Below, piece by piece: positions 33,089-46,110 of a stretch of 47,334 nt of DNA. The position numbers and the translations under genes were made by a program. Position 1 is the first letter of the stretch. Each line of letters starts with the position of its first letter. The notes beneath the pieces are model-generated. The model had not been told where the DNA came from. It worked only from the letters and a program-made list of their open reading frames with translations, and ran no database searches. The DNA is taken from assembly GCA_030649835.1 (NCBI GenBank), contig JAUSES010000073.1:1-47334 (forward strand), given 5' to 3'. Source of the stretch: a bacterium (GTDB lineage: Bacteria > Patescibacteriota > Minisyncoccia > Phycocordibacterales > UBA1550).

Positions 33089-33157
33089 GTGTGCTGTAGT
33101 AAAGAACCCCCTTTCGGCATCCGCTGTTTGGGTAAATTGAAAAAAAGGGTGAAAAAG

Positions 33158-33889
33158 ATGAAAAAGGCATTATTGTTTGTACTGGTTACGTTTGTTTACT
33201 TATTTTCGGGCACTCAGGTATCCATGGCCTCTGACATCGACGAAATGCCACCATGTCCGGGGTGCCTCATAAAGGCATCCCCAAGTCTGTTTTACGGTGG
33301 TGTCGGCTTCGTTCAGCTCGGAGACGCAAAGGAAACTGAGGTTACAGCTCAGGAGGCGTCAATATTGTCTGCCCCAATTTACGGCGGTCATCGCGAAGTG
33401 CGAACAAAGAGGCTCGCAAAGGATATCTTCCTCGGCTACAAGCTTCCCCGCAACTTCGCAGCTGAACTAGGATACATTGGTGGCGATACTGGCGCAACAT
33501 CAACAGTAACTGGGGGGTATCAATGGATAGATTGGTATAATAATCCAGCAAGCACCACCATCACCTATTCTCAAAAGTCAATTGTTTCTGCGTGGCACCT
33601 GTCATTTATTAAAGAGTTGCCGCTGAATGAACATGTGAAGATTTTTGGAAGGGTTGGAATGATCAAGACGCATACCCAATGGGAGCAAAGATGGGCATAT
33701 GTCTCAACCTGCACCGGTTGTACAAACGACGGCTCCTATCAGGCCAAATCTAAAACAACAGACAAAACTGACGGACTCCTTGGTGTTGGACTATCGGCAA
33801 ATGTCCTCAGAAACATGAATGTTCGATTCGAAGTGACTAAGCACTCCTCGGTCTATCAGCCGAAAATTGCTGCGGTGATGAACTTCTAA
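33158..33889 (+). CDS. Outer-membrane-type beta-barrel protein 1
   Basis: 243 residues. The start MKKALLFVLVTFVYLFSG to a cleavage site near SMASD is a classic signal peptide. The mature part is built of alternating strands with repeated aromatic girdles and Gly (YGGVGFVQLGDA, FLGYKLPRNFAAELGYIGG, VKIFGRVGMIKTHTQWEQR, LLGVGLSANVLRNMNVRFEVTKH) and ends in Phe, the usual signal for the BAM complex. It resembles eight-stranded OmpA/OmpW-like barrels. Two CxxC pairs (CPGC, CTGC) may form disulfides. A start at 33089 would add a soluble extension, so 33158 with its ribosome-binding site is used. Unexpected in a lineage without an outer membrane. Confidence 0.8.
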   Translation: MKKALLFVLVTFVYLFSGTQVSMASDIDEMPPCPGCLIKASPSLFYGGVGFVQLGDAKETEVTAQEASILSAPIYGGHREVRTKRLAKDIFLGYKLPRNFAAELGYIGGDTGATSTVTGGYQWIDWYNNPASTTITYSQKSIVSAWHLSFIKELPLNEHVKIFGRVGMIKTHTQWEQRWAYVSTCTGCTNDGSYQAKSKTTDKTDGLLGVGLSANVLRNMNVRFEVTKHSSVYQPKIAAVMNF

Positions 33890-33908
33890 AACCGAGACAA
33901 AAGACTAT

Positions 33909-33942
33909 GGGCTAGCAACTACGTTGCTAGCCCTATTTTCTA
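33909..33942 (+). terminator. Terminator of barrel gene 1
   Basis: GGGCTAGCAAC pairs with GTTGCTAGCCC around a 3-nt loop, followed by TATTTTCTATATTTT. Confidence 0.85.
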
Positions 33943-34040
33943 TATTTTAGCGTACTTGCATCAATTTTACCAAAATGGTATTTTTAAAAAAGTAAATGTA
34001 GCAGTGTGTTCTTAAGTAAATTTAATGACATGGGGGCTTT

Positions 34041-34670
34041 ATGAAAACATTCTTTGTTTTATTGGCATTCTTGTTATTCCCGATGAGCGTGTTGGCAGAA
34101 GATACAGGCAAGCCATATTTTGCGCTTTCATTTGGAAGTATCCGCGCAAACAACCTAAAATTTTCCAAGTTGGAACAACGAGTGCTTGACAATAAGCACG
34201 TCACGGCTAGATCCTCAGTAAAAAATGAAAGTACGTATCGAGCATTTGCACTCGGATACTGCATTAATGTTTACTGGTGTCTAGAAGGCGCGTATCTTGC
34301 GGGTCTTGAATACAGCACGTCAGTTGCCGTAAGTGCTATATACGACCTTCCTATTCATTTTACAATTGAAAGGAGAGCAAACATAACGGCGATGCAATAC
34401 TCCATCACGAGAACATTTTTTCCAGAAAAAATAATATCACCATTTGTCCGACTTGGAGCAATAGATTACCAAGCAACAGTAAGTGCTCGCATTTATAATT
34501 CAAGTGGATATTATGTAGGAAAAGATGAGACCTATACAGGAACAGAACCGATGGGCAGTATTGGAATTGCAATAAACCCATTCAAAAGAGTCAAGTTACA
34601 AGTTGAATGGCAGGGATTCGGGCCAGTGACTACAAAATCGTTTAGTTTGATATATAGGCAGCCATTTTAA
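34041..34670 (+). CDS. Outer-membrane-type beta-barrel protein 2
   Basis: 209 residues with a signal peptide (MKTFFVLLAFLLFPMSVLAE, cleavage after LA). The mature part shows alternating strands (YFALSFGSIRA, YRAFALGYCINVYWCLEGAYLAG, ISPFVRLGAIDYQATV, MGSIGIAINPFKRVKLQVEWQG) and ends IYRQPF with terminal Phe. Similar in plan to barrel 1 but not an obvious duplicate. The GGGGGC ribosome-binding site is 5 nt before the ATG. Together the two form a separate pair with own terminators. Adhesin, porin or a surface target of attachment to a host are all possible. Confidence 0.75.
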   Translation: MKTFFVLLAFLLFPMSVLAEDTGKPYFALSFGSIRANNLKFSKLEQRVLDNKHVTARSSVKNESTYRAFALGYCINVYWCLEGAYLAGLEYSTSVAVSAIYDLPIHFTIERRANITAMQYSITRTFFPEKIISPFVRLGAIDYQATVSARIYNSSGYYVGKDETYTGTEPMGSIGIAINPFKRVKLQVEWQGFGPVTTKSFSLIYRQPF

Positions 34671-35566: not shown

Positions 35567-36352
35567 TCAATAGGATGGTCGAATGGAAATCCGGCCATCA
35601 AAGCTTCTGATGATCTGTACATAGCTATCGTGCTGAATTAGCGCTGGGCTACGCTCCTTGCAAATCCACAGAACGCCCGCGTCTTCTCGAATCGTCCAAT
35701 TGGCTAGGTTACCGAATTGGTCGACGATCTGAATATTCCCAACCGGGAGCCCACAGCCTTTTGGAATACGAAGACAGTTATCAATTGCGGAGTAGCGCGC
35801 AAAGCCAATGCTTTCGGCCCTGGCAGCAAGTTTCCCCTCCACTTCATGCGCTGAGCGGCCATTTCTATCACGGTATACGGACACTGTCAGGTGTTGCACA
35901 TCTACCGCGCTCAGTGCCGATGTCCAAGCAGGATCAGGTAAATTGCCGACAACGGCGACATAGCGCGGCACGTACCGAAGTAGTGCTTCCGCATCTTCCG
36001 GCCTCAGTTCTTTAAACCCCCGAACTAGGCTAGTGACGCACGAAGACTCAGGTTCGCCATACCGAAAGCACCTGACCTGAGGAAGAACGTGCTGCTCAAA
36101 CGAGTGCCCCGCCAATTCGACTTCGACAACAAACCAATGCGAAAGGCTCTTATGAATGAGGGCAAGATCGGCCACGCGTCGATCACCTTCCAGTACAAAC
36201 GCACCAGCGAATACGCCGCAAAGGTACCCCGGTTGCAGGCAGGTGAGCGCTTTGACTACTTCGGCCTCAAAGTCGCCTTCGACAAATTGCGTTGGATCAA
36301 CGAGATGAAAAATGTTGTCCTCGTGACACTCACCGGTCACTAGCTTCTTCAT
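35567..36352 (-). CDS. PD-(D/E)xK-like nuclease candidate of the first defence operon
   Basis: About 261 residues. A nuclease-like core is visible: GDRRVADLALIHKS (Asp62), then WFVVEVEL (Glu77, Glu79), then a Gln-containing helix (SFEQHVLPQVRCF). This is the D...ExK order of PD-(D/E)xK enzymes, but the final Lys is Glu. The C-terminal 80 residues are probably a DNA-binding or partner domain. The start at 36352 (MKKLVTGE) shares an ATGA overlap with the helicase stop, a sign of coupled translation. I do not recognise the family by name; an inactive or altered nuclease is possible. Confidence 0.6.
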   Translation of the reverse strand: MKKLVTGECHEDNIFHLVDPTQFVEGDFEAEVVKALTCLQPGYLCGVFAGAFVLEGDRRVADLALIHKSLSHWFVVEVELAGHSFEQHVLPQVRCFRYGEPESSCVTSLVRGFKELRPEDAEALLRYVPRYVAVVGNLPDPAWTSALSAVDVQHLTVSVYRDRNGRSAHEVEGKLAARAESIGFARYSAIDNCLRIPKGCGLPVGNIQIVDQFGNLANWTIREDAGVLWICKERSPALIQHDSYVQIIRSFDGRISIRPSY

Positions 36353-37503
36353 GCTCGACTCCACGTGACGGTTGCAACGCCGTCTAGGTGCTCTTCCTCT
36401 TCCTTGAGGCGATCAATTTCTGGGCCAGTGGCGACTAGAGTATAAATTGACGCTCCCGCTTTCCCTTTCGCTGGGCGAACAACGCGCCCCAGACGCTGAA
36501 TCCGTTGCCGCCGCGTTGCCGTGCTCGCAGCGATGATGCCCACCTCTGTCTCGGGAACATTGAAACCTTCGTCCAATGCGCGGCATGTCACCAGAACGTC
36601 AATTTCGCCTCTACGGTACTGGCCGAGCATGGCCGCCTTCGCGCGCAGCGGCAACTTGGAGTGATAAACGCCGCACCTAACGCCATTCTCGTAGAGAACG
36701 CTATGGATCAGATCACATGCCTCGATATCTTCGTGGAAAATCAATGTGCGCTTGCCACGGTTGGCAGCGACCAACTTCAGCGCCAATCGAATGCGATTGA
36801 GACTGAGATTGAGTACACGCGCCCGCTTCAAGAACAACGCGATTGTCTCTTCGGCCTCGGTTCCGTGCTGACTGATTGATCGGGCGATTGATTTGCTGAG
36901 TTTGTCGTATTCTGCCTGCCGGTCTTCCTCTAACTCAAACACCACGTTCTTAAGTTCGAAGGGCACGATAACTCCATCACGCAGAGCATCCGCATAGCCA
37001 TAGGTGAATATAACCGGGCCGAGCGCGGGAATGAGTACATCTTTGAGTCCCTCATCATAGGGCCGCTCTGGTGTCGCTGATAGGCCAAGTGAGGCGAATG
37101 TGTTGATCTGCAAGGCAGTGCGAAACTGCTCAGAGGCGGCCTTGTGACACTCGTCAACAATTAGGAAGCATTTGTGCTCCTGTATCTTCTCCGCCAGCTT
37201 GGCAGCGGTATTGAGCACGGCGATATTGATGGCGCCTAAGCGGAACCGGAGGCTACCGGTCACGATGTTGATTTCATCAAGGTCAAGATCGAAATAACTG
37301 GCTGCCTCTTCCCACCACTGCTCCAACAACGCTGCTGTAGGCACGATAATAAGCGTTGCAATCGGTCGAATTCGATCAATGCATGACAGGGCGAAGACTG
37401 TCTTACCACCGCCCGTAACCACGCTCACAATGCCGCGATGGTTGGTTCGCTCCCACTCCGCGAGAGCCTTTATCTGCCAACCTCTGGGCATCAACTTAGG
37501 CAA
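36349..37503 (-). CDS. Superfamily 2 DNA helicase, XPB/type III restriction-like
   Basis: 384 residues with two RecA domains. Motif Q region PRGWQIKALAEW, Walker A VTGGGKT (29-35), Walker B/DEAH DECH (117-120), motif III SAT (142-144), and motif VI QRIQRLGRVVRP (333-344). The GGGKT loop and short length recall XPB-like translocases and the helicase subunits of ATP-dependent restriction systems. It would move along or open DNA for the nuclease. It follows the ATPase gene after 15 nt. Base composition is clearly richer in G+C than in the core genes, a sign of transfer. Confidence 0.88.
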   Translation of the reverse strand: MPKLMPRGWQIKALAEWERTNHRGIVSVVTGGGKTVFALSCIDRIRPIATLIIVPTAALLEQWWEEAASYFDLDLDEINIVTGSLRFRLGAINIAVLNTAAKLAEKIQEHKCFLIVDECHKAASEQFRTALQINTFASLGLSATPERPYDEGLKDVLIPALGPVIFTYGYADALRDGVIVPFELKNVVFELEEDRQAEYDKLSKSIARSISQHGTEAEETIALFLKRARVLNLSLNRIRLALKLVAANRGKRTLIFHEDIEACDLIHSVLYENGVRCGVYHSKLPLRAKAAMLGQYRRGEIDVLVTCRALDEGFNVPETEVGIIAASTATRRQRIQRLGRVVRPAKGKAGASIYTLVATGPEIDRLKEEEEHLDGVATVTWSRA

Positions 37504-37518
37504 TCATATCCCCTAGCA

Positions 37519-39117
37519 CTAACCAGCGGCTGGCTTGGCATCCTGACGAAATAGATTGGCCTCAGCTTGTGCCCGCACTTCGGAATCAGCGTTATCGATC
37601 TGGGTAGCACGTGCGCGAAGCAAGTCGTTTTTCAAACGGCGAACACTGTCCGGGTTCACCCTCGCGACAAGCTTGCTGGCTTTAAATTCAGCGACAGCGT
37701 CGAAGATGTACTGCTGAATGCATTCGTTAATCGAGTCTTTCGCTTCAAGGGTTTGATAGTAGGGATGCAGACCGTTGATGATCACATGGAGAATACCTGC
37801 CTCTGCTCCCGGTACAAATGTGACATGAGGCTCCCACTCGCTCGTTTCCTTCAGAGACATGATGACCTTTAGGTCGGGGAGGATTTCCAGGCGGCCAATC
37901 TCGTCCTCAGCGGTAAGCGAGTTGAGCTGTATCTGGTTGTTGGCGGCCAGAGTCTCCGGTGGGGGCAGAGCCGCATTGTTCAGCGCATCCTTGATCTCAG
38001 GGCTGGTGAACTCGTCCTGCATGCTCTTAACGAGGTCACGCACCTGTTCCCTTGACCATTTCTGCCCTCGGCCAGGCCCGCGTCGGCTCTTCGCATATTC
38101 AGCGTAAGCTCTCGTTTCCTGCACTAGGAACTGTTCAAGTTTATCTTCCTCATCGCCTTCAAAGAGGATTGCATCCTTCGTGTGAGATACGACAAAACCG
38201 TCAAGCTGCAGAATTCCAGTCAATCGCTGCGCGACTAGGTTGTTGGCACCCTCATCGTCGACACCACCGAAGATCGACTTCGGCTTCCACGCATTGGGAA
38301 AGCCTTGAATTTGTCGGCCATTCTGGAAGAGAGAGAAGCCACCGAACTTGCGTCCACCCTTGCGTAGTACGCCAATCCAACCATTGATGGTCTTCCCATC
38401 AATTGTCAATTCTGACAAGTCACGTTTCATGACTATGCCTGCCGGATCAGTGTCCCAATCACTTTCTTGTGGTGGGGTAACTTCCTCGCCGTTGTAGGTC
38501 AATTTCAATGCGACTTTACCTTTGTCGTCCGGGCGAAGGTCGAACATGTACATTGACCCAAGATATATCTTGATGGTCTCTTCAGAGCGCTTCTGAATCA
38601 CGCGGCGTAGTCCGCTGATAGTAATCCGTGTGTAGTGTTGGTCTTTATCGACTGTGCGAGTGGTGAGTGGTACCTTGGCGTTATGGTTTGCGATTGCATC
38701 CACGTCAACCGTTGCTGTCCACTCCTCACCACTGTCCCACTGGCAGGTGGTCACGGTCCATTTGCTTCCAATCCAGCAAGCTGCAGTCTTCATACCCATG
38801 CCATACTTGGAGCGTCCTTTGCTGTCAGGGGTTGGGATGGCAATGCGTAGCGCGGCCACAAGGTCAGCCTTATCCATCCCAATCGAGTTGTCCTCAATGA
38901 TGATTTCCTTGGTTTGCCGGTTGTGAACGATTGAGATGGTTAAAGGCTGGCCTTCGTTTTTAAGAATATCATTTACCAGGCTGCCGTAATTGAGGCGAGA
39001 TTGCGTTGAGTTATCAACAAATTCGGCCAGTGCAAACCACATCGTGTAACTCAGTCGGCTGTAAGCATCGATTGATTTTGGCCCAACGCTTAGTTCCGCT
39101 TCAAAATTTTGCGTCAT
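37519..39117 (-). CDS. GHKL (Hsp90/MutL/MORC-like) ATPase
   Basis: 532 residues. The Bergerat ATP-binding fold is seen in order: ALAEFVDNSTQS (Glu32, Asn36), IEDNSIGM (Asp76 to Met81; the usual DNGxGM with Ser), and GRSKYGMGMKTAA (lid, 101-113). A second domain with GGRKFGGFSLFQNGRQIQGFP and a C-terminal helical region follow. ATP binding should dimerise the N-termini to clamp DNA, as in MutL and MORC. MORC/MutL-type ATPases with helicases, nucleases and methylases have been predicted as restriction-modification systems (work of Iyer, Abhiman and Aravind). Good ribosome-binding site GGGAGC. Confidence 0.85.
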   Translation of the reverse strand: MTQNFEAELSVGPKSIDAYSRLSYTMWFALAEFVDNSTQSRLNYGSLVNDILKNEGQPLTISIVHNRQTKEIIIEDNSIGMDKADLVAALRIAIPTPDSKGRSKYGMGMKTAACWIGSKWTVTTCQWDSGEEWTATVDVDAIANHNAKVPLTTRTVDKDQHYTRITISGLRRVIQKRSEETIKIYLGSMYMFDLRPDDKGKVALKLTYNGEEVTPPQESDWDTDPAGIVMKRDLSELTIDGKTINGWIGVLRKGGRKFGGFSLFQNGRQIQGFPNAWKPKSIFGGVDDEGANNLVAQRLTGILQLDGFVVSHTKDAILFEGDEEDKLEQFLVQETRAYAEYAKSRRGPGRGQKWSREQVRDLVKSMQDEFTSPEIKDALNNAALPPPETLAANNQIQLNSLTAEDEIGRLEILPDLKVIMSLKETSEWEPHVTFVPGAEAGILHVIINGLHPYYQTLEAKDSINECIQQYIFDAVAEFKASKLVARVNPDSVRRLKNDLLRARATQIDNADSEVRAQAEANLFRQDAKPAAG

Positions 39118-39170
39118 ATCGCTTGCTCCCGGTTAAAAAAGAAATAGTGCTATGTTCTAATGGTAATACA

Positions 39171-40163
39171 CTAAACTTCAGGAAATGAATCTTGGGTTAT
39201 ACGGTCTCCAAAGCGGCCGCGCGAACCTTTGATGTAATCCTCCGACGCTTCGATACTGATCCAAAAGCGTTCAAGCTCTTCAGCTGCGGCACCGGTCGTA
39301 TTACTACCACCAAAAGGGTCAAGAACGATATCGTCTGGCTCCGTCAGGAACTTGATGAAGAACTTTGCCAATTCGCTAGGCATCCGAGCTGGATGAAGTT
39401 GAAGCTTGTTTTCTCGACAATAGGTCTGGTAGGCATCGGCACTTTGCGTGTTTGCGTAGGTAAGCACATTAGATGGAATGGCTCCGCCGTTGTCACGCAA
39501 AAAGGCAGTTTTGCTGATGTTATGTTCTGACGGTCGCTTACCCGAGTTGTAACTCCCTTTCTTTAAGAGTTCTTTCATCGCTTTGCTGTATTCTTGCAGA
39601 ACGTGCTGATTGTTTGCCTTTGGCCTCTGGTTGGGTGACATCCACCACAACTTCGTAAAGCTATCTTTAACGCGAATGCGCTCTATATTCACCCATTGGG
39701 CGGGCGAAGGTAACCTGGCTGGATTCTGCCAGATGAACTCTTGACATAGATGGAGTTCGTTCTTCGCCTGAAATTCCAGCAATGCGCGAAGCGCAAGAGT
39801 TGACATAACGGGTGCGCCAGGTTCCCATGAGTTCCCCATTTCGATAACGATGGAACCATTCGGGGCCAACATCTTCTTGAAGAAAGGGCCAAAGGCGCTG
39901 AGCCATTGGATGTAACTGTCACCTGTCTCGTTTCCATACCGCTTCTTCCGATTCAGCGGAAACGGAGGTGACGTGAAAATCAAATTCACTTTTCCCTCAA
40001 ACCGCGAAAGCGATCCATCTCCGAGCAACTCGTCAGATTTACCCAATAGCATCCGGCCCTGGCGCGTAGAATAGGCGACGTTTGCAGGGGGGCGCCCTAG
40101 AAATGGACTGGAGAGAGGGGGCGCAACCTCATCAATGTTGTTCTTAAGTATATTATTTTGCAT
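39171..40163 (-). CDS. Type II-like DNA methyltransferase, SPPF (beta) class
   Basis: 330 residues. The catalytic motif IV is TSPPF (64-68) and comes before the SAM-binding motif I, LDPFGGSNTTG (about 281-291), the order of beta-class methylases; SPP(F/Y/W) is most common in N4-cytosine enzymes but also in some N6-adenine ones. A target-recognition region lies between. It is the first gene of the operon, so it would protect host DNA before the restriction parts are made. A candidate promoter lies at 40207-40235. Confidence 0.9.
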   Translation of the reverse strand: MQNNILKNNIDEVAPPLSSPFLGRPPANVAYSTRQGRMLLGKSDELLGDGSLSRFEGKVNLIFTSPPFPLNRKKRYGNETGDSYIQWLSAFGPFFKKMLAPNGSIVIEMGNSWEPGAPVMSTLALRALLEFQAKNELHLCQEFIWQNPARLPSPAQWVNIERIRVKDSFTKLWWMSPNQRPKANNQHVLQEYSKAMKELLKKGSYNSGKRPSEHNISKTAFLRDNGGAIPSNVLTYANTQSADAYQTYCRENKLQLHPARMPSELAKFFIKFLTEPDDIVLDPFGGSNTTGAAAEELERFWISIEASEDYIKGSRGRFGDRITQDSFPEV

Positions 40164-40603: not shown

Positions 40604-40645
40604 AATTGCTATAAACTCTTGGAGATCAGGATCGCTTATCTTCAT
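40565..40645 (-). CDS. 26-residue mini-ORF coupled to the NDPK-like gene, probably truncated
   Basis: It starts with an ATGA overlap on the NDPK-like stop and reads MKISDPDLQEFIAIYVEEFG followed by six more residues and a stop. From memory this beginning resembles a family of small acidic proteins common near accessory genes in Parcubacteria, which normally run to about 45-60 residues. Here the frame ends early, so it is a remnant or a leader-size peptide. Below the usual length cut-off for gene calls. Confidence 0.4.
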   Translation of the reverse strand: MKISDPDLQEFIAIYVEEFGVLICRM

Positions 40646-41607
40646 GGTTGCTTAATGATAGGCAAGTCAGATAGCATTTTAACGACCGCACCCGTATCTA
40701 ATTCCTCCGTTGCATCAAATGATGAAAGTGAGCGACCATTTATCGTCAACATGCAATTTGATGCGAACGATGCAATAGCACTTTCAGGAATGCCCACCTT
40801 TCCCAACTCGCTTCCAAGCAGGGTATTTTTGTAGGCAATTACCTTCCCATTCGAATGGTCACTGAAAAAACGCTGATACTCAACCATTCCTTCCAGCGGC
40901 CCAGCTGAAAGGTGTACACCGTTCACGCCTTGACTAACTTCTGCCATTCCGAGTTCTTGCTGACGCTGAAGCAAAATCTGCCTTATAGAGCCCACAGAAG
41001 CCACTGAGGGGTTTGTCGCACCTATCAAATCTTGCCTGATATCTTTCCAAGAAGTATCCGTTAAGCATTCCAACACAATGATTGCTCTATTAGGGGTAGT
41101 AAAGTGGCAAAGTTGGTGTGGATGGAAAGGATTCAAGAGAGTCATATGCTCTCCCCCAACGCGTGCCGGAATATAGTATGTCCCACCCCCTAGTTTCTTT
41201 GTTCCAACGCTATCGGATAAAACATTTAGTGCAAAAGGAGAGAAGTCAGAAAAACGCTCTAAAAATTGATGCCCGCCAAAGACGAGGCGTTCCTCACCAC
41301 CGCTTTGTTCAGCAAGTCTCTTTTTTGCATCATCTGATAACGCGGCGATACCTAAACGAGAAATCTGATTGATAACACCATAGTGCGCATCCATGATGTT
41401 GTAATTTTTAAGATATGCACCATTAAGAATTCTTACGCCTCCCACCACAACATGACTATCTTCAAGTGCACACGCAATAATATCTATAATTCCCTGGACA
41501 TTCACTCCATCGGACAACGCAGTTGCTTCGGGCTTTAGAAAAAGAACACACTGGTTGCGGAAGTTGGTGTTTAAAGAGGGGGGGCGCAATCCAATCACCT
41601 CTTGCAT
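40642..41607 (-). CDS. Nucleoside diphosphate kinase-like protein with a large insertion
   Basis: 321 residues. Start and end of the NDPK fold are clear: VLFLKPEA (Lys25) at the first strand, then HYG (Tyr76), RQDLIGATNP (Arg191, Thr198), VGSIRQIL (Arg209) and NGVHLSAGPLEGMVEYQRFF (Asn229, His232). These match K12, Y52, R88, T94, R105, N115 and the phosphorylated H118 of NDPK, so activity looks preserved. About 80 extra residues lie in the middle and about 70 at the C-terminus. NDPKs swap phosphate between NTP and NDP; an extra domain suggests a special substrate. Last large gene of a five-gene run. An upstream ATG at 41665 is in another frame (see finding). Confidence 0.75.
   Translation of the reverse strand: MQEVIGLRPPSLNTNFRNQCVLFLKPEATALSDGVNVQGIIDIIACALEDSHVVVGGVRILNGAYLKNYNIMDAHYGVINQISRLGIAALSDDAKKRLAEQSGGEERLVFGGHQFLERFSDFSPFALNVLSDSVGTKKLGGGTYYIPARVGGEHMTLLNPFHPHQLCHFTTPNRAIIVLECLTDTSWKDIRQDLIGATNPSVASVGSIRQILLQRQQELGMAEVSQGVNGVHLSAGPLEGMVEYQRFFSDHSNGKVIAYKNTLLGSELGKVGIPESAIASFASNCMLTINGRSLSSFDATEELDTGAVVKMLSDLPIIKQP
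41578..41584. repeat. Seven-base homopolymer at the start of the NDPK-like gene
   Basis: G7 on the plus strand, C7 in the gene. An ATG at 41665 with AGAGAG upstream opens a frame (MTTTLDLAFQQLPSVLKDSN) that joins the NDPK frame only if the run is six long. Either an error, an inactivating slip or a phase-variable tract. Confidence 0.6.
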
Positions 41608-41683
41608 TACTATCTTTTAACACGCTAGGTAACTGTTGGAATGCCAAGTCGAGTGTGGTCGTCATTCTCTATTTTCTCTCTAT

Positions 41684-42379
41684 CTAGTTGGTCGTACTAT
41701 CATCATAACCGAGGCGGAACATCGCCATAGGGCGCGCATTATAAACGACCTCTTGTCCATAATTGTTCTTTTTAACCCAGTCTTGAGCTAATCCATACAA
41801 TGATTGTGGCGATATTGGGTTTGCGAAGCTAGGGGGGCCAAGGTCTTCGCCAAAATCTATAGCAAACACATTTTGCCCATCTGTTCGTAAGTCACTAAAT
41901 GCATCAGTGGGGCTAAATTTATATTTAGCCAGCACCCCCGCATAATAAAATACTTGATCAATGAGTTTGTCATTATTTATCTCAGACTTTTGTAGTTGCT
42001 CTGCCAAGCTATGTTGCACAAACTGTTCAAGGATGACTCCCTGCCCAGCAAAGAACAACGTAGGCGTAAATACCCCAGCATCATTTAGCAGATGCCTTCG
42101 CGAAAGCCGATCATTTAGAAGATCATCTAAAGTACGCGACGGGGAATAGGCTACAACGGCTTTAAGGATCAGCTCGCGGCAAAAACCTGAGGAGCTGACG
42201 ATGCAAAAGGGAAAAATGTACGTCTCAGCACCGCCACGCTTCCAGTCGCCATAAGTTTTCACCGTTATGTTGTCGTGACCAACCGGGATAAGATTTAAAA
42301 CTGAAATAGCTTCGTTGACTGTCCTAGAGTTGGTTAACTTCAGAAGTTCTTCTTCAATACTCCATTCTTGTGCGCCCAT
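41684..42379 (-). CDS. Small kinase-fold (APH/choline-kinase-like) protein
   Basis: About 231 residues. The order Lys (LILKAVVAY, Lys74), hinge VILEQFV (Glu119), catalytic-loop-like SDLRTDGQNVFA (Asp164, Asn171) and AIDFGEDLG (Asp176) follows the kinase fold used by aminoglycoside and choline phosphotransferases. The His before the catalytic Asp is Ser. It is shorter than typical APH enzymes. It could phosphorylate a nucleoside, a small molecule or a protein. The start overlaps the end of the phosphoesterase gene region (GTG at 42382 or ATG at 42379), so translation is coupled. Confidence 0.6.
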   Translation of the reverse strand: MGAQEWSIEEELLKLTNSRTVNEAISVLNLIPVGHDNITVKTYGDWKRGGAETYIFPFCIVSSSGFCRELILKAVVAYSPSRTLDDLLNDRLSRRHLLNDAGVFTPTLFFAGQGVILEQFVQHSLAEQLQKSEINNDKLIDQVFYYAGVLAKYKFSPTDAFSDLRTDGQNVFAIDFGEDLGPPSFANPISPQSLYGLAQDWVKKNNYGQEVVYNARPMAMFRLGYDDSTTN

Positions 42380-42382
42380 CAC

Positions 42383-44173
42383 CTAGTCAATAGAAGGGTT
42401 GGAGTGGAATTGGGGTTGAAATTTAAATTTTTCTGGTGGCATATCAAACTCCAAATTATTTGGTACGTATTTGTGAATTTCGCACTCTAACCCCTTGGAA
42501 AATGGCTTGTATAGACGGATAATATTCCCCACCCCGTCTGGCAAATCTTTAGAGCCTGCAGTGCCGGCTCCAAGAATACCCATGGGTAATATTTTCTTCT
42601 TCTCAAAATCATATATCCCGCATAAGGAAGTGAAACATGTATGCTGGTGCCCATGCATGACAAAATGTGTTCCAGCTTTCGCAAAATATTTTTCTGCGTC
42701 AAATGCATCTAGTATAAATCCGTATCTATCGGATAGCGCATAATTAGCCACCGGTTTAATATGATGATGCATTACAACAAAATTCATTTCTTCCCTCTCT
42801 AATAATTTGTCCTGGGTTAACCCATCCTTATTTAAGAGAGCAATGTAGTCCTTGTAAAAAATATGCCCGCCCAAATACCCATTTTCGGGTGTGCCCACTC
42901 CATTGTGTCTGTATGAATTTAAACATGCAAAGCGAACCAACCAACCATTAACCAATCGAAATTGCCTAAATGAATTTGATTCAGAAGTTTTTATTTCATA
43001 GAAGGTATCCACAAATTTTCGATAATGAGCTTCAGCATCTCGACGCTCCCTAGAAATTTTCAGAAAACGCTTATCTAAAATAGCCCTATTTAACCCTTTT
43101 AAACTTTCCTTTTGATGTCGCTGCGAAGCATTAGTTAGTATTTTATGTTTTTCCGTTAAAGTTAAGGTCGTTAAGTAGTCTCCCTCGAAGTATTTTTCAC
43201 TTTTTTTAAATAGCTCTTTATTTTCAAGTACACGGTTAAGCCATTTGATAGAATATTCTTTCTTCGGTAGCCTGCTGTAGCTTTTGTATATATCGTCACA
43301 AAATCGATGAAATTCCTCTAGAGGCAAATCACTAAAATCTTTATCATAATAATTATAGTCATCACGAGTTAAATCGTGATTTCCAGGAACCATTACTACT
43401 TGGGATTTCTGTATCTTTAGCTTGTCACATAGCTGCTCAATCGCGGTTTTGGCAACATTAAAATCTACCCCGTCTTTTCCGCCACCGCGCGATACAATGT
43501 CTCCTGAAATTACAAGAACACCGATTTTTTTAAATTCCAGCCTTGTTTCGATGTATTCCGCTAATGTCGTTGAGAATTGTTCTGTGCCAAAACCATGATC
43601 CTTGCCGTAGTGTGTATCTGATATATGAAGTATCCACTCACCGTTAGTTGTAATTGGTTCTTTGTCTATGTACGTTCCGATTTCTGGCGTTGGACGGCAC
43701 ACCGTTGTTTGATCGAGCTTATCGGTAAGGCAAATGTTCTTTACAGCTACGATAGTGGCGTCACAATTAGCAACGCCACCAAATTGTTCTTCAAAGTCCC
43801 TGGTCTCTACCAGATTGATTTCTGACAACTTGAACCATGCGGATAATTCCGCTTTGGCATAGTAAGTTGGGGTTAAATTTTGATTCGGTGACGAAATGGC
43901 TTCGGCATTAACGCTACCAATTCTAATTTCCATACATTTGGCACTATAACCACGGTTTTCATTGCGATCATATAAGCCGATTACTATGGGCGCTTTGCCA
44001 GAGATCGTGCGTAGAAGTTCGAGGGGGATTTCTTCTTCTGGCCTCTTGAACCAGCCCCACCAGACAGTTCTCTCATTGTGCAGTATTTGACTGTGTGCCT
44101 CGATAGCGGGATGGTCAGGGTTAAAGTTATCACGAAACCTAAGAATAACTGTTTTGATTTCATTGTTTCCCAT
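42383..44173 (-). CDS. Large calcineurin-like metallophosphoesterase with N-terminal domain
   Basis: 596 residues. Residues 1-175 form a domain I do not recognise (contains HNERTVWWGWFKRPEEEIP). Then the five metallophosphoesterase motifs: HISDTHYG (183-190), VISGDIVSRG (Asp225), VPGNHDL (Asn265, His266), VVMHHH (469-471) and MHGHQH (His509, His511). A helical insertion of about 150 residues lies between motifs III and IV. All metal ligands are present, so it should hydrolyse phosphoester bonds in nucleotides, nucleic acids or proteins. Good ribosome-binding site GGGAGGGG. Central member of the operon. Confidence 0.82.
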   Translation of the reverse strand: MGNNEIKTVILRFRDNFNPDHPAIEAHSQILHNERTVWWGWFKRPEEEIPLELLRTISGKAPIVIGLYDRNENRGYSAKCMEIRIGSVNAEAISSPNQNLTPTYYAKAELSAWFKLSEINLVETRDFEEQFGGVANCDATIVAVKNICLTDKLDQTTVCRPTPEIGTYIDKEPITTNGEWILHISDTHYGKDHGFGTEQFSTTLAEYIETRLEFKKIGVLVISGDIVSRGGGKDGVDFNVAKTAIEQLCDKLKIQKSQVVMVPGNHDLTRDDYNYYDKDFSDLPLEEFHRFCDDIYKSYSRLPKKEYSIKWLNRVLENKELFKKSEKYFEGDYLTTLTLTEKHKILTNASQRHQKESLKGLNRAILDKRFLKISRERRDAEAHYRKFVDTFYEIKTSESNSFRQFRLVNGWLVRFACLNSYRHNGVGTPENGYLGGHIFYKDYIALLNKDGLTQDKLLEREEMNFVVMHHHIKPVANYALSDRYGFILDAFDAEKYFAKAGTHFVMHGHQHTCFTSLCGIYDFEKKKILPMGILGAGTAGSKDLPDGVGNIIRLYKPFSKGLECEIHKYVPNNLEFDMPPEKFKFQPQFHSNPSID

Positions 44174-44189
44174 ACCCCTCCCGTTAATG

Positions 44190-45359
44190 TCAGGTTTTAT
44201 TAGTTACGACCAAGCACTGATGGTTGCTGTCCCACCAAAGAATATCGCGATCTCTACGATCATGGCGGCTGATACTCAAGAAGCTTTCTAGCCGCGAGGG
44301 CTGGTGTCCAATAAACTCGCCAAGGTTCCCTCTAAAAACGACCGCAGTATTTCGGTCGCCATACCTTGCCCAACATTGCGGCTCCAAGTTAAATTTTGTG
44401 GCTTGGTTTTTAGCTCGATGTGCATCAAATTTAAGGGCTCGCATCTCTGCCATTCTCCAATCAACAGGAGGAGTTGCAATGCCCTGCCGCTGCAATATTT
44501 TTTCCTCAAATCCGGGCATCAAAAAGCGCGCGATCATTGCGAGTTCGTTTTCTTGGCATCCCATGACCACCAATTCTTTTTGTAGTGCGAGTATGTCTTT
44601 TCTTGCTCCGTGGCGAGAGAGTTCTGGAAAAATGGGGCATAAGATTTGCCCTCCTTTCTTGCTTAGTATCGTGGTCGCACGAGCAAGAAAAGCGCGGTAA
44701 TAGTCCAAATACCATGGCGGATCCATAATGACCACGTCGGCAATATTTTCCAAGTGGTCTGGCAGGATGTCTTGCACGTCGTATGTTTGGCTTGAGAAGT
44801 CTGCCTTTTGATTACGCGCATAGCTGTCGATCATTTCCACTAGCGGAGTGTTTATATCTAGTAAAACGATTTTTCCTTGCCAGCCACGTTGAACAAGTTC
44901 AATGGCAATCGTTGGGCTTCCCAAACAACATATAGTTTTATCTGGCGAATTCTCCAAGTGCTTGCTGACATAATCGGCGATATTACGGGTAGTCTCGGGT
45001 GTAAAACGCCAGTCATAGTTTGCTGGGTGTTCTGGCGGCAAGCCTATTTCATCCGCTATTGCCAACCAACCATCTCTCGATATTTTCTCCGATACTTTCG
45101 TGCGCACCACCTCTAGTCCTTCGGAGCGCAGCAGGTCATCTATCACAGAAGGGAAGGCACCCAACATTTGTTCAAGGATGGCATTAAAATGCGGTGAGCC
45201 ATCGGGAGTATTCAGGTGGCGATATATACTCCGCAGACGTTCTCGCGCAAAAGACTCAAAAGTCTCTTCTTCGCTTGTAGGGGTAAGATTTGATCCTTCC
45301 TCGCAGGCGGCAATGCTTGCAGAGAAGTTATCTAATCGGATTGATCGAAAGTCGTTCAT
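44190..45359 (-). CDS. Rossmann-fold SAM-type transferase with DPPW motif (BpsA-like)
   Basis: 389 residues. A helical N-terminal part (1-120) precedes a SAM-type Rossmann fold: CLGSPTIAIELVQRGW (146-160), the acidic end of strand 2 IVLLDIN (Asp168) and VVIMDPPWYLDYYRAFLA (DPPW at 213-216). The order and the short GSPT loop in place of GxGxG resemble branched-chain polyamine synthase BpsA, which uses decarboxylated SAM and a DPPY motif; DPPW also occurs in amino methyltransferases such as N6-adenine enzymes. So it is a predicted methyl- or aminopropyl-transferase on an amino group. It overlaps the NUDIX gene by 4 nt (ATGA). Confidence 0.7.
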   Translation of the reverse strand: MNDFRSIRLDNFSASIAACEEGSNLTPTSEEETFESFARERLRSIYRHLNTPDGSPHFNAILEQMLGAFPSVIDDLLRSEGLEVVRTKVSEKISRDGWLAIADEIGLPPEHPANYDWRFTPETTRNIADYVSKHLENSPDKTICCLGSPTIAIELVQRGWQGKIVLLDINTPLVEMIDSYARNQKADFSSQTYDVQDILPDHLENIADVVIMDPPWYLDYYRAFLARATTILSKKGGQILCPIFPELSRHGARKDILALQKELVVMGCQENELAMIARFLMPGFEEKILQRQGIATPPVDWRMAEMRALKFDAHRAKNQATKFNLEPQCWARYGDRNTAVVFRGNLGEFIGHQPSRLESFLSISRHDRRDRDILWWDSNHQCLVVTNKT

Positions 45360-45946
45360 TTAGCGTATTTGCCCTTGTTTGGAAAAATCCAGGACTCGTC
45401 CGACAAATTTCGCACATCAAAGTCACCATAAGCAATATCCATCAAATATTGCTTGGTCATATTGCATTTTGCTTCTTGATAATTGGTAACCGATACAGCT
45501 GTCGGCGGTATAAAAAATCCTCTAATTGCAATAAGTGCATTTCTTACGTGCACTTCCATACCATAAATGGTGCGTTGGGTTTCTACATAATCAACAACCT
45601 CTTCAGGCAGTATCCACTCATGCTTGCTTGCACTAGTCTCATCTATAACGGTTTCAGGTGTGTCGGTTCTCGCGAGAAAAACCAAACCCTGCGTTGACGA
45701 CCCGTCTTTCCGAGTAAATTTATATGCCGACAGGAAATGAAGGTTCGTGAGATGAACAAGTCCGACTTCTTCTCCAAGTTCCCTTAACAATGCTTGGATT
45801 ACATCTTCGTTCGCATCCACCTTCCCCCCGGGGAATACCCACTGTCCACTATATTCTCCTGCTGTCGCAGGACGCTGGATAAAAAGAAATCTCCCCTCGT
45901 GTTCTACAAGTGCGGTAACTGCTATTGTGTGTTGAGTGCTTGTCAT
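45356..45946 (-). CDS. NUDIX hydrolase with C-terminal extension
   Basis: About 196 residues. The complete Nudix box (residues 41-63, GX5EX7REUXEEXGU) reads GKVDANEDVIQALLRELGEE and VGL, with all acidic metal ligands. NUDIX enzymes cleave nucleoside diphosphates linked to another group. The last 60 residues after the fold are extra. The start MTSTQHTIAV at 45946 is chosen because TAGAAT lies just upstream; a GTG at 45985 gives a longer version. First gene of the five-gene operon. Confidence 0.88.
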   Translation of the reverse strand: MTSTQHTIAVTALVEHEGRFLFIQRPATAGEYSGQWVFPGGKVDANEDVIQALLRELGEEVGLVHLTNLHFLSAYKFTRKDGSSTQGLVFLARTDTPETVIDETSASKHEWILPEEVVDYVETQRTIYGMEVHVRNALIAIRGFFIPPTAVSVTNYQEAKCNMTKQYLMDIAYGDFDVRNLSDESWIFPNKGKYAK

Positions 45947-46077
45947 AAATATTCTAGTAGTTGATTTGATAAAAAATGAATTCACCGTACTGAATTACCT
46001 TAATTTAATGCGTATTATAAAATAATTACTTACCCCCAAGTTTAGTAAAGCATATTGCCATATAAAAAACAATGACA

Positions 46078-46102
46078 AAACCCCCGCATCCAGCGGGGGT
46101 TT
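46078..46102 (-). terminator. Terminator of the RadC-like gene
   Basis: AAACCCCCGC and GCGGGGGTTT around a 5-nt loop, with a T-rich end on the minus strand. Lies about 9 nt beyond the RadC-like stop. Confidence 0.85.
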
Positions 46103-46110
46103 CACACTCA

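What the first reader, a model, noticed from the sequence alone, without database searches (positions are those of the whole stretch)
40642..45946. Five-gene operon of nucleotide-chemistry enzymes: NUDIX, DPPW transferase, phosphoesterase, kinase-fold protein and a catalytically intact NDPK-like protein
All five genes lie on one strand with overlaps or very short gaps. The NDPK-like protein keeps all active-site residues (Lys25, Tyr76, Arg191, Thr198, Arg209, Asn229, His232) yet is more than twice the normal length. The kinase-fold protein could supply the nucleotide monophosphate, NDPK the triphosphate, the DPPW enzyme the modification (methyl or aminopropyl) and NUDIX plus phosphoesterase the clean-up. 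I know no described system with this set. It could make a modified or chain-terminating nucleotide against phages, or modify nucleic acid. Location beside a restriction operon and ArdC supports a conflict role. The pathway is inference.
Basis: partly seen in the sequence, partly recalled or inferred. Interest (0 to 1): 0.85.

Follow-up and report, generated by a model that had tools for sequence, protein, structure and literature searches.

The report
DS-9-like defence operon with nucleotide enzymes
A tiny-genome bacterium carries a five-gene operon whose two central genes form a recurring mobile pair related to a proven anti-phage system, here joined by a NUDIX hydrolase, an orphan protein and an unusual long nucleotide kinase of a type otherwise found in another bacterial lineage.

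Summary
The five genes are real, co-directional and tightly packed, with a strong terminator-like hairpin just upstream of the first gene and none in the junctions. Four of the five assignments hold. The NUDIX has a perfect box. The DPPW protein is Rossmann methyltransferase-like. The phosphoesterase is a Pua-like + calcineurin-like protein of the DS-9A family (DS-9 is a proven anti-phage system). The long NDPK is a true NDPK fold. The 'kinase-fold' protein has no detectable relative and could not be confirmed.

The DPPW-phosphoesterase pair recurs: in five other mobile loci the two genes overlap by 19 bases, and the phosphoesterase tree separates DPPW-paired from HAD-paired (DS-9) forms. The full five-gene order was found nowhere else. 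The NDPK is not peculiar to this operon: relatives at 44-48% identity are the apparent sole NDPK of some Verrucomicrobiota/Kiritimatiellae.

Best reading: a DS-9-like defence module in which a DPPW enzyme replaces the HAD phosphatase, with accessory nucleotide enzymes. The proposed pathway to a modified or chain-terminating nucleotide is not excluded but has no direct support. New variant of a known kind.

The parts
45356..45946 (-). NUDIX hydrolase with C-terminal extension; possible GTG start at 45985
   Evidence: PF00293 1.6e-17; perfect Nudix box
44190..45359 (-). DPPW protein, class I (Rossmann) methyltransferase-like; predicted modifying partner of the phosphoesterase
   Evidence: PF01861 2.5e-10 and PF10237 1.8e-9, both over cut-off; family-wide DPPWY and HP-x4-WR type motifs
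42383..44173 (-). Pua-like + calcineurin-like metallophosphoesterase, DS-9A family; predicted effector
   Evidence: PF24405 1.6e-25, PF00149 8.3e-13; NF053862 DS9_1_antiphage 1.8e-75, 254.6 bits against a cut-off of 420; intact metal motifs
41684..42382 (-). Orphan 232-aa protein; kinase-like motifs by eye (Lys74, Asp164, Asn171, Asp176 in IDFGED), fold unconfirmed
   Evidence: no family, no PDB relative, model pLDDT 40, no convincing homologue
40642..41607 (-). Long nucleoside diphosphate kinase of a type found as apparent housekeeping NDPK in some Verrucomicrobiota/Kiritimatiellae
   Evidence: AF2 model pLDDT 87.2, best PDB fold matches all NDPK, 44-48% identity to chromosomal relatives
46075..46105 (-). 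Intrinsic terminator-like hairpin ending the upstream RadC gene; marks the upstream edge of the operon
   Evidence: 13 pairs, T tail

Best explanation
The operon is an anti-phage defence unit built on a two-gene core: a Pua-like-metallophosphoesterase effector of the DS-9A family and a DPPW methyltransferase-like partner that stands in for the HAD phosphatase of DS-9. The likely mechanism is that the phosphoesterase cleaves a phosphodiester in a nucleotide or nucleic acid during infection; the DPPW enzyme, made first and translationally coupled in the relatives, modifies a base-bearing molecule that the Pua-like domain reads, so that the effector is restrained or directed. NUDIX, the orphan protein and the long NDPK are accessory: they plausibly clean up and re-charge the nucleotide pool around the effector. 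Shown by computation: the gene pair, its recurrence in mobile elements, the intact catalytic motifs, the NDPK fold and its relatives. Shown by others: DS-9A catalytic residues are needed for defence. Inferred: the substrate, the direction of control, and the accessory role of the other three genes.
For: The phosphoesterase matches NF053862 (DS9_1_antiphage) at 1.8e-75. DS-9 protects E. coli and needs the metallophosphatase residues (PMC13092281). DPPW lies directly upstream of the same phosphoesterase family, overlapping by 19 bases, on plasmids of Loktanella, Agrobacterium and R. leguminosarum, in a satellite-like contig carrying a P4-type primase gene (L049) and in a prophage contig (L061). 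The HAD-paired (DS-9) form occupies satellites and prophages and lies beside Hachiman on p22Q34-1. The phosphoesterase tree separates DPPW-paired from HAD-paired forms, support 100/99. A Loktanella DPPW-paired phosphoesterase passes the DS9_1 cut-off, 443.8 against 420. A second DPPW cassette, with radical SAM, ASCH and a P-loop kinase, again puts DPPW beside a base-binding-type (ASCH) domain. The window operon lies in an island-like stretch with restriction-type genes, RadC and an ArdC-type peptidase.
Against: The window phosphoesterase is below the DS9_1 cut-off and sits on a very long branch (3.61), so its place in the DPPW clade may be unreliable; its best BLAST scores are to HAD-paired forms. 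DPPW identity to the paired homologues is only 21-24%. No experiment exists on any DPPW-phosphoesterase pair. The five-gene order is known from one genome. The NDPK (76-base gap, Verrucomicrobiota-type) could be an unrelated passenger.
Confidence: 0.5

Rival explanations
1. A modified-nucleotide pathway: gene 4 phosphorylates a nucleoside to the monophosphate, NDPK makes the triphosphate, DPPW modifies the base, NUDIX and the phosphoesterase remove self-damage; the product poisons phage polymerases or marks nucleic acid.
For: All confirmed members act on nucleotides or phosphoesters. Distant relatives of the NDPK lie in a conserved plasmid cluster with inositol-phosphate synthase, methionine adenosyltransferase, SDR and NUDIX that looks biosynthetic. 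DPPW cassettes elsewhere carry radical SAM, ASCH and nucleotide-kinase-like genes. The Rhizobiaceae DPPW loci carry a kinase-adenylosuccinate synthetase fusion and a YfbR-like HD protein.
Against: Gene 4 is not shown to be a kinase. The order is not conserved elsewhere. The NDPK type looks housekeeping in Verrucomicrobiota, and the host already has a canonical NDPK, so no special substrate is implied. Metabolite chemistry was not tested.
Confidence: 0.13
2. A toxin-antitoxin or restriction-modification-like pair only: DPPW methylates host DNA, RNA or nucleotide so that the Pua-like-phosphoesterase nuclease spares it; the other three genes are unrelated cargo.
For: Modifier-then-effector order with overlapping genes in five loci; DPPW motif and PF10237 (N6-adenine methyltransferase-like) match; SbcD/Mre11-type nucleases are among the phosphoesterase's distant relatives.
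Against: The same effector family works with a HAD phosphatase in DS-9 (and PMC13092281), which does not fit simple modification protection. The best solved relative is Lmo2642 (2xmo), ahead of the SbcD/Mre11 group.
Confidence: 0.22
3. Chance packing of unrelated cargo genes in a mobile island, with no common function; any defence role belongs to single genes.
For: NUDIX, gene 4 and NDPK never co-occur with the pair in other loci; NDPK is separated by 76 bases.
Against: Overlap and short gaps from NUDIX to gene 4, no terminator in the junctions, all on one strand; the DPPW-phosphoesterase pair recurs.
Confidence: 0.15

Closest known systems
DS-9 (DefensePredictor discovered system 9; NF053862 for its first gene)
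   Same: Pua-like + calcineurin-like phosphoesterase of the same family, intact metal motifs, mobile-element setting, two-gene core
   Different: Partner is a DPPW methyltransferase-like protein upstream, not a HAD phosphatase downstream; three further genes, two of them nucleotide enzymes; window phosphoesterase scores below the family cut-off
DS-8 (metallophosphatase-NACHT)
   Same: Homologous metallophosphatase domain (2.9e-9)
   Different: No NACHT domain; separate Pua-like domain
Long single-domain NDPK of Kiritimatiellae/Verrucomicrobia (loci L025-L032)
   Same: 44-48% identity over about 300 residues, same catalytic residues and same long insert between Tyr76 and Arg191
   Different: There chromosomal, mostly beside RsmB/NSUN-type methyltransferase or aspartate aminotransferase genes, not beside defence genes
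PF10237 N6-adenine methyltransferase-like / PF01861 BpsA_C
   Same: Class I Rossmann core with DPP[FWY]
   Different: No BpsA GDDD motif; extra family motifs (HPLD[FY]DWR, SRR); the other members tested match no Pfam model

Membership tests
DS-9 anti-phage system | First gene is the DS9_1 phosphoesterase over the NCBIfam cut-off (420 bits) | tested here: not met
   254.6 bits, E 1.8e-75; related but below cut-off
DS-9 anti-phage system | Partner gene is a HAD phosphatase | tested here: not met
   No HAD gene in the operon; DPPW protein is the partner
DS-9 anti-phage system | Intact metallophosphatase active site | tested here: met
   All motifs present and conserved
DS-9 anti-phage system | Protection against phage | not testable with these tools
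   needs plaque assays
Nucleoside diphosphate kinase (PF00334 superfamily) | NDPK fold | tested here: met
   model pLDDT 87.2; best 50 PDB matches all NDPK, TM by target 0.53-0.77
Nucleoside diphosphate kinase (PF00334 superfamily) | Catalytic His with Lys, Tyr, Arg, Asn of the active site | tested here: met
   K25, Y76, R209, N229, H232 invariant in 11; R191 is one residue out of canonical register
Nucleoside diphosphate kinase (PF00334 superfamily) | Pfam gathering score of 27 bits | tested here: not met
   16.6 bits, E 0.0074; the Verrucomicrobiota relatives also fall short but for one
Protein- or aminoglycoside-kinase fold (gene 4) | Profile or fold match to a kinase family | tested here: inconclusive
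   no match; structure model unusable, pLDDT 40
Class I methyltransferase, N6-adenine-like (PF10237) | Profile score over cut-off | tested here: met
   37.9 bits against 23.2
Branched-chain polyamine synthase BpsA | GDDD active-site motif (from my own knowledge) | tested here: not met
   GSPT in the window, G-x-P-[SG] in the other rows of the family alignment; PF01861 itself matches, 40.5 bits against 27
NUDIX hydrolase | Nudix box Gx5Ex7REUxEExGU | tested here: met

The most novel reading that the evidence does not exclude
The operon makes, protects against and recycles a modified nucleotide that stops phage replication: DPPW modifies a nucleotide base, NDPK (and possibly gene 4) charge it, NUDIX limits it in the host, and the Pua-like phosphoesterase recognises and releases or destroys it during infection. 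I know of no described system of this make-up.
Probability: 0.1. Interest if true: 0.85.

Novelty: new variant of a known kind. Interest (0 to 1): 0.47.

Why it matters
DS-9 was validated only recently and its substrate is unknown. Its effector family has at least two alternative partners (HAD phosphatase or DPPW methyltransferase-like enzyme), the DPPW partner also travels with ASCH, radical SAM and nucleotide-kinase-like genes, and one copy has gathered NUDIX and NDPK genes. Together these point towards base-modified nucleotides or nucleic acid as the substrate, which can be tested directly. The case also shows a housekeeping-type long NDPK in a defence-island setting.

Tried and rejected
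Finding the five-gene order elsewhere: gene 4 was searched in 240 genomes of the host phylum, 241 of the Verrucomicrobiota sample, plasmids, phages and viral contigs, without a convincing homologue (only weak E 0.002-0.003 matches). DPPW and phosphoesterase profiles found no close relative in the host-phylum samples (287 and 240 genomes), and DPPW none in the Verrucomicrobiota sample. The NDPK-like protein was absent from phages and viral contigs, and only short matches to its NDPK-type C-terminal region appeared among 380 genomes of the host phylum.

A misbinned Verrucomicrobium contig was considered because of the NDPK. Judged unlikely: positions 1-33 kb hold ordinary chromosomal genes and no Verrucomicrobial synteny. 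No phylogenetic test of the flanking genes was made.

That the double length means a fused domain was rejected: it is one NDPK domain with a long insert. The roughly 400-aa NDPKs common in Verrucomicrobiota are tandem two-domain proteins and gave no match to the profile of this family.

The single-sequence model of gene 4 failed, so no fold search was run on it. A search of E. coli genomes for the L049 pair found nothing. Paper searches for the DPPW cassette domains and for long NDPKs gave nothing relevant.

Full report
OBSERVATION. The five ORFs lie on the minus strand exactly as described. Spacing is a 4-base overlap, 16 bases, 0 bases and 76 bases. A strong terminator-like hairpin (13 pairs, T tail) ends the upstream RadC gene at 46105-46075, and none falls in the junctions. 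So a single transcription unit is likely, with NDPK the least tightly attached.

SETTING. The window is contig C67 of a 1.06 Mb assembly whose congeners have 0.6-0.8 Mb. Positions 1-33 kb hold chromosomal genes (ftsW, murG, gltX, asnB, cysS, dnaB, recR, uvrA/uvrC-type). Positions 35.5-47.3 kb look like an acquired island: an N6/N4 DNA methyltransferase, a HATPase protein, a PbeA/Dnd-restriction-type helicase, a small protein with a possible nuclease motif, the five genes, RadC and a zincin-like peptidase of the ArdC type.

WHAT EACH GENE IS. The NUDIX protein is ordinary (PF00293, 1.6e-17, full Nudix box). The DPPW protein matches PF01861 and PF10237, both over cut-off. Its family shares HP-x4-WR, G-x-P, DPPWY and a C-terminal S-R motif. 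The GDDD motif that I know from BpsA is absent, so methyl rather than aminopropyl transfer is the better guess (inference). The third protein is Pua-like plus calcineurin-like phosphoesterase (PF24405 1.6e-25, PF00149 8.3e-13) and matches NF053862, 'anti-phage phosphoesterase' DS9_1, at 1.8e-75 but below that model's cut-off. Gene 4 has no family, no PDB relative and no usable model; the kinase reading rests on short motifs only. The fifth protein is an NDPK: its nine-sequence model has mean pLDDT 87.2, and all fifty top PDB folds are NDPKs. Five active-site residues are invariant in 11 sequences. Two are less firm: Thr198 is lost in distant relatives, and Arg191 is one residue out of canonical register.

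THE NDPK IS NOT A DEFENCE INVENTION. Eight Verrucomicrobia/Kiritimatiellae loci encode it at 44-48% identity, mostly beside an RsmB/NSUN-like methyltransferase or an aspartate aminotransferase gene (read by eye from the ORFs), never beside the other four genes. In those eight genomes the best PF00334 match is weak and fits the long gene itself; no canonical NDPK appears. In a 145-genome sample of that phylum four genomes have this type, and 110 have another recognisable NDPK (about 46 canonical, about 65 long two-domain places); the four have none of the others. So it is probably their housekeeping NDPK. The window's host also has a canonical NDPK (G000:C12, 4.1e-46), as do most congeners. The operon copy is therefore an extra one, probably acquired horizontally (inference).

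THE CORE IS A RECURRING PAIR. The DPPW gene lies directly upstream of the same phosphoesterase family on plasmids of Loktanella, Agrobacterium and Rhizobium, in a satellite-like contig with a P4-type primase gene (L049) and in a prophage contig (L061). In all five the two genes overlap by 19 bases (with the family's conserved start). The HAD-paired form, which is DS-9 by make-up, occupies satellites and prophages. In a tree of twelve phosphoesterases the partner type needs one change only, support 100/99, with no shuffle of 500 as low for the DPPW label. The window branch is very long, so its own place is less sure. A DPPW-paired phosphoesterase (L015) passes the DS9_1 cut-off. DS-9 was shown to protect E. 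coli, its metallophosphatase residues are needed, and its substrate is unknown (PMC13092281).

WIDER LINKS. DPPW proteins also sit in a conserved plasmid cassette of cyanobacteria and alphaproteobacteria: DUF6932, XRE regulator, DUF4186, radical SAM, DPPW, ASCH, P-loop kinase. In both Rhizobiaceae loci the DPPW-phosphoesterase pair is accompanied by a P-loop-kinase-adenylosuccinate-synthetase fusion, a DUF7002 protein and a YfbR-like HD protein. These links make a nucleotide or base substrate plausible.

MECHANISM. Most likely (0.5): phosphoesterase as effector, DPPW as the enzyme that sets a base mark which the Pua-like domain reads, the rest accessory.

VERDICT. Observation confirmed; interpretation partly supported. 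New variant of a known kind: a DS-9-like module with a different partner and an expanded operon.

Noticed in passing
L002 1333-12241 (Parageobacillus plasmid NZ_CP040554.1) and L003 4619-9852 (Paraburkholderia plasmid NZ_AP023181.1): Distant relatives of the long NDPK lie in a conserved cluster with inositol-1-phosphate synthase (46% identity between the two), methionine adenosyltransferase (41%), SDR (39%) and NUDIX; it looks like a biosynthetic cluster, perhaps for a carbocyclic nucleoside or SAM analogue.
   Followed up: partly
L016, L017, L018, L019, L024 (plasmids, about 5.3-11.3 kb in each locus): Conserved cassette DUF6932 - XRE/M78 regulator - DUF4186 - radical SAM - DPPW protein - ASCH - P-loop kinase on cyanobacterial and alphaproteobacterial plasmids; no description of its role turned up in the paper search.
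   Followed up: partly
L020 7994-14938 and L021 5666-12694 (Rhizobiaceae plasmids): DPPW-phosphoesterase pair beside a P-loop-kinase-adenylosuccinate-synthetase fusion (533 aa), a DUF7002 protein, a YfbR-like HD protein and a protein of about 455 aa; rearranged but conserved in both.
   Followed up: partly
window 35567-40163 (-): Four-gene restriction-type set: N6/N4 DNA methyltransferase, HATPase_c_3 protein, PbeA/Dnd-restriction-type helicase and a 265-aa protein without a family (possible PD-(D/E)XK-like motif by eye); GC up to 0.545, above the rest of the contig.
   Followed up: no
window 33089-34670 (+): Two genes with outer-membrane beta-barrel matches (PF01389 6.3e-11; PF13505 7.9e-6, the latter below its cut-off) in a contig of a very small genome, surprising if the organism is a Patescibacterium.
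   Followed up: no
L074-L077 (Verrucomicrobiota genomes G477, G434, G483, G413): About 65 NDPK places in a 145-genome sample of this phylum lie in roughly 400-aa proteins made of two NDPK-like halves, the C-terminal one keeping the catalytic region; unrelated by profile to the long NDPK of the window.
   Followed up: partly
G000 (whole assembly): The assembly is 0.3-0.4 Mb larger than its congeners at 98% completeness and 1.2% contamination, so mobile DNA or undetected foreign contigs may be present.
   Followed up: no
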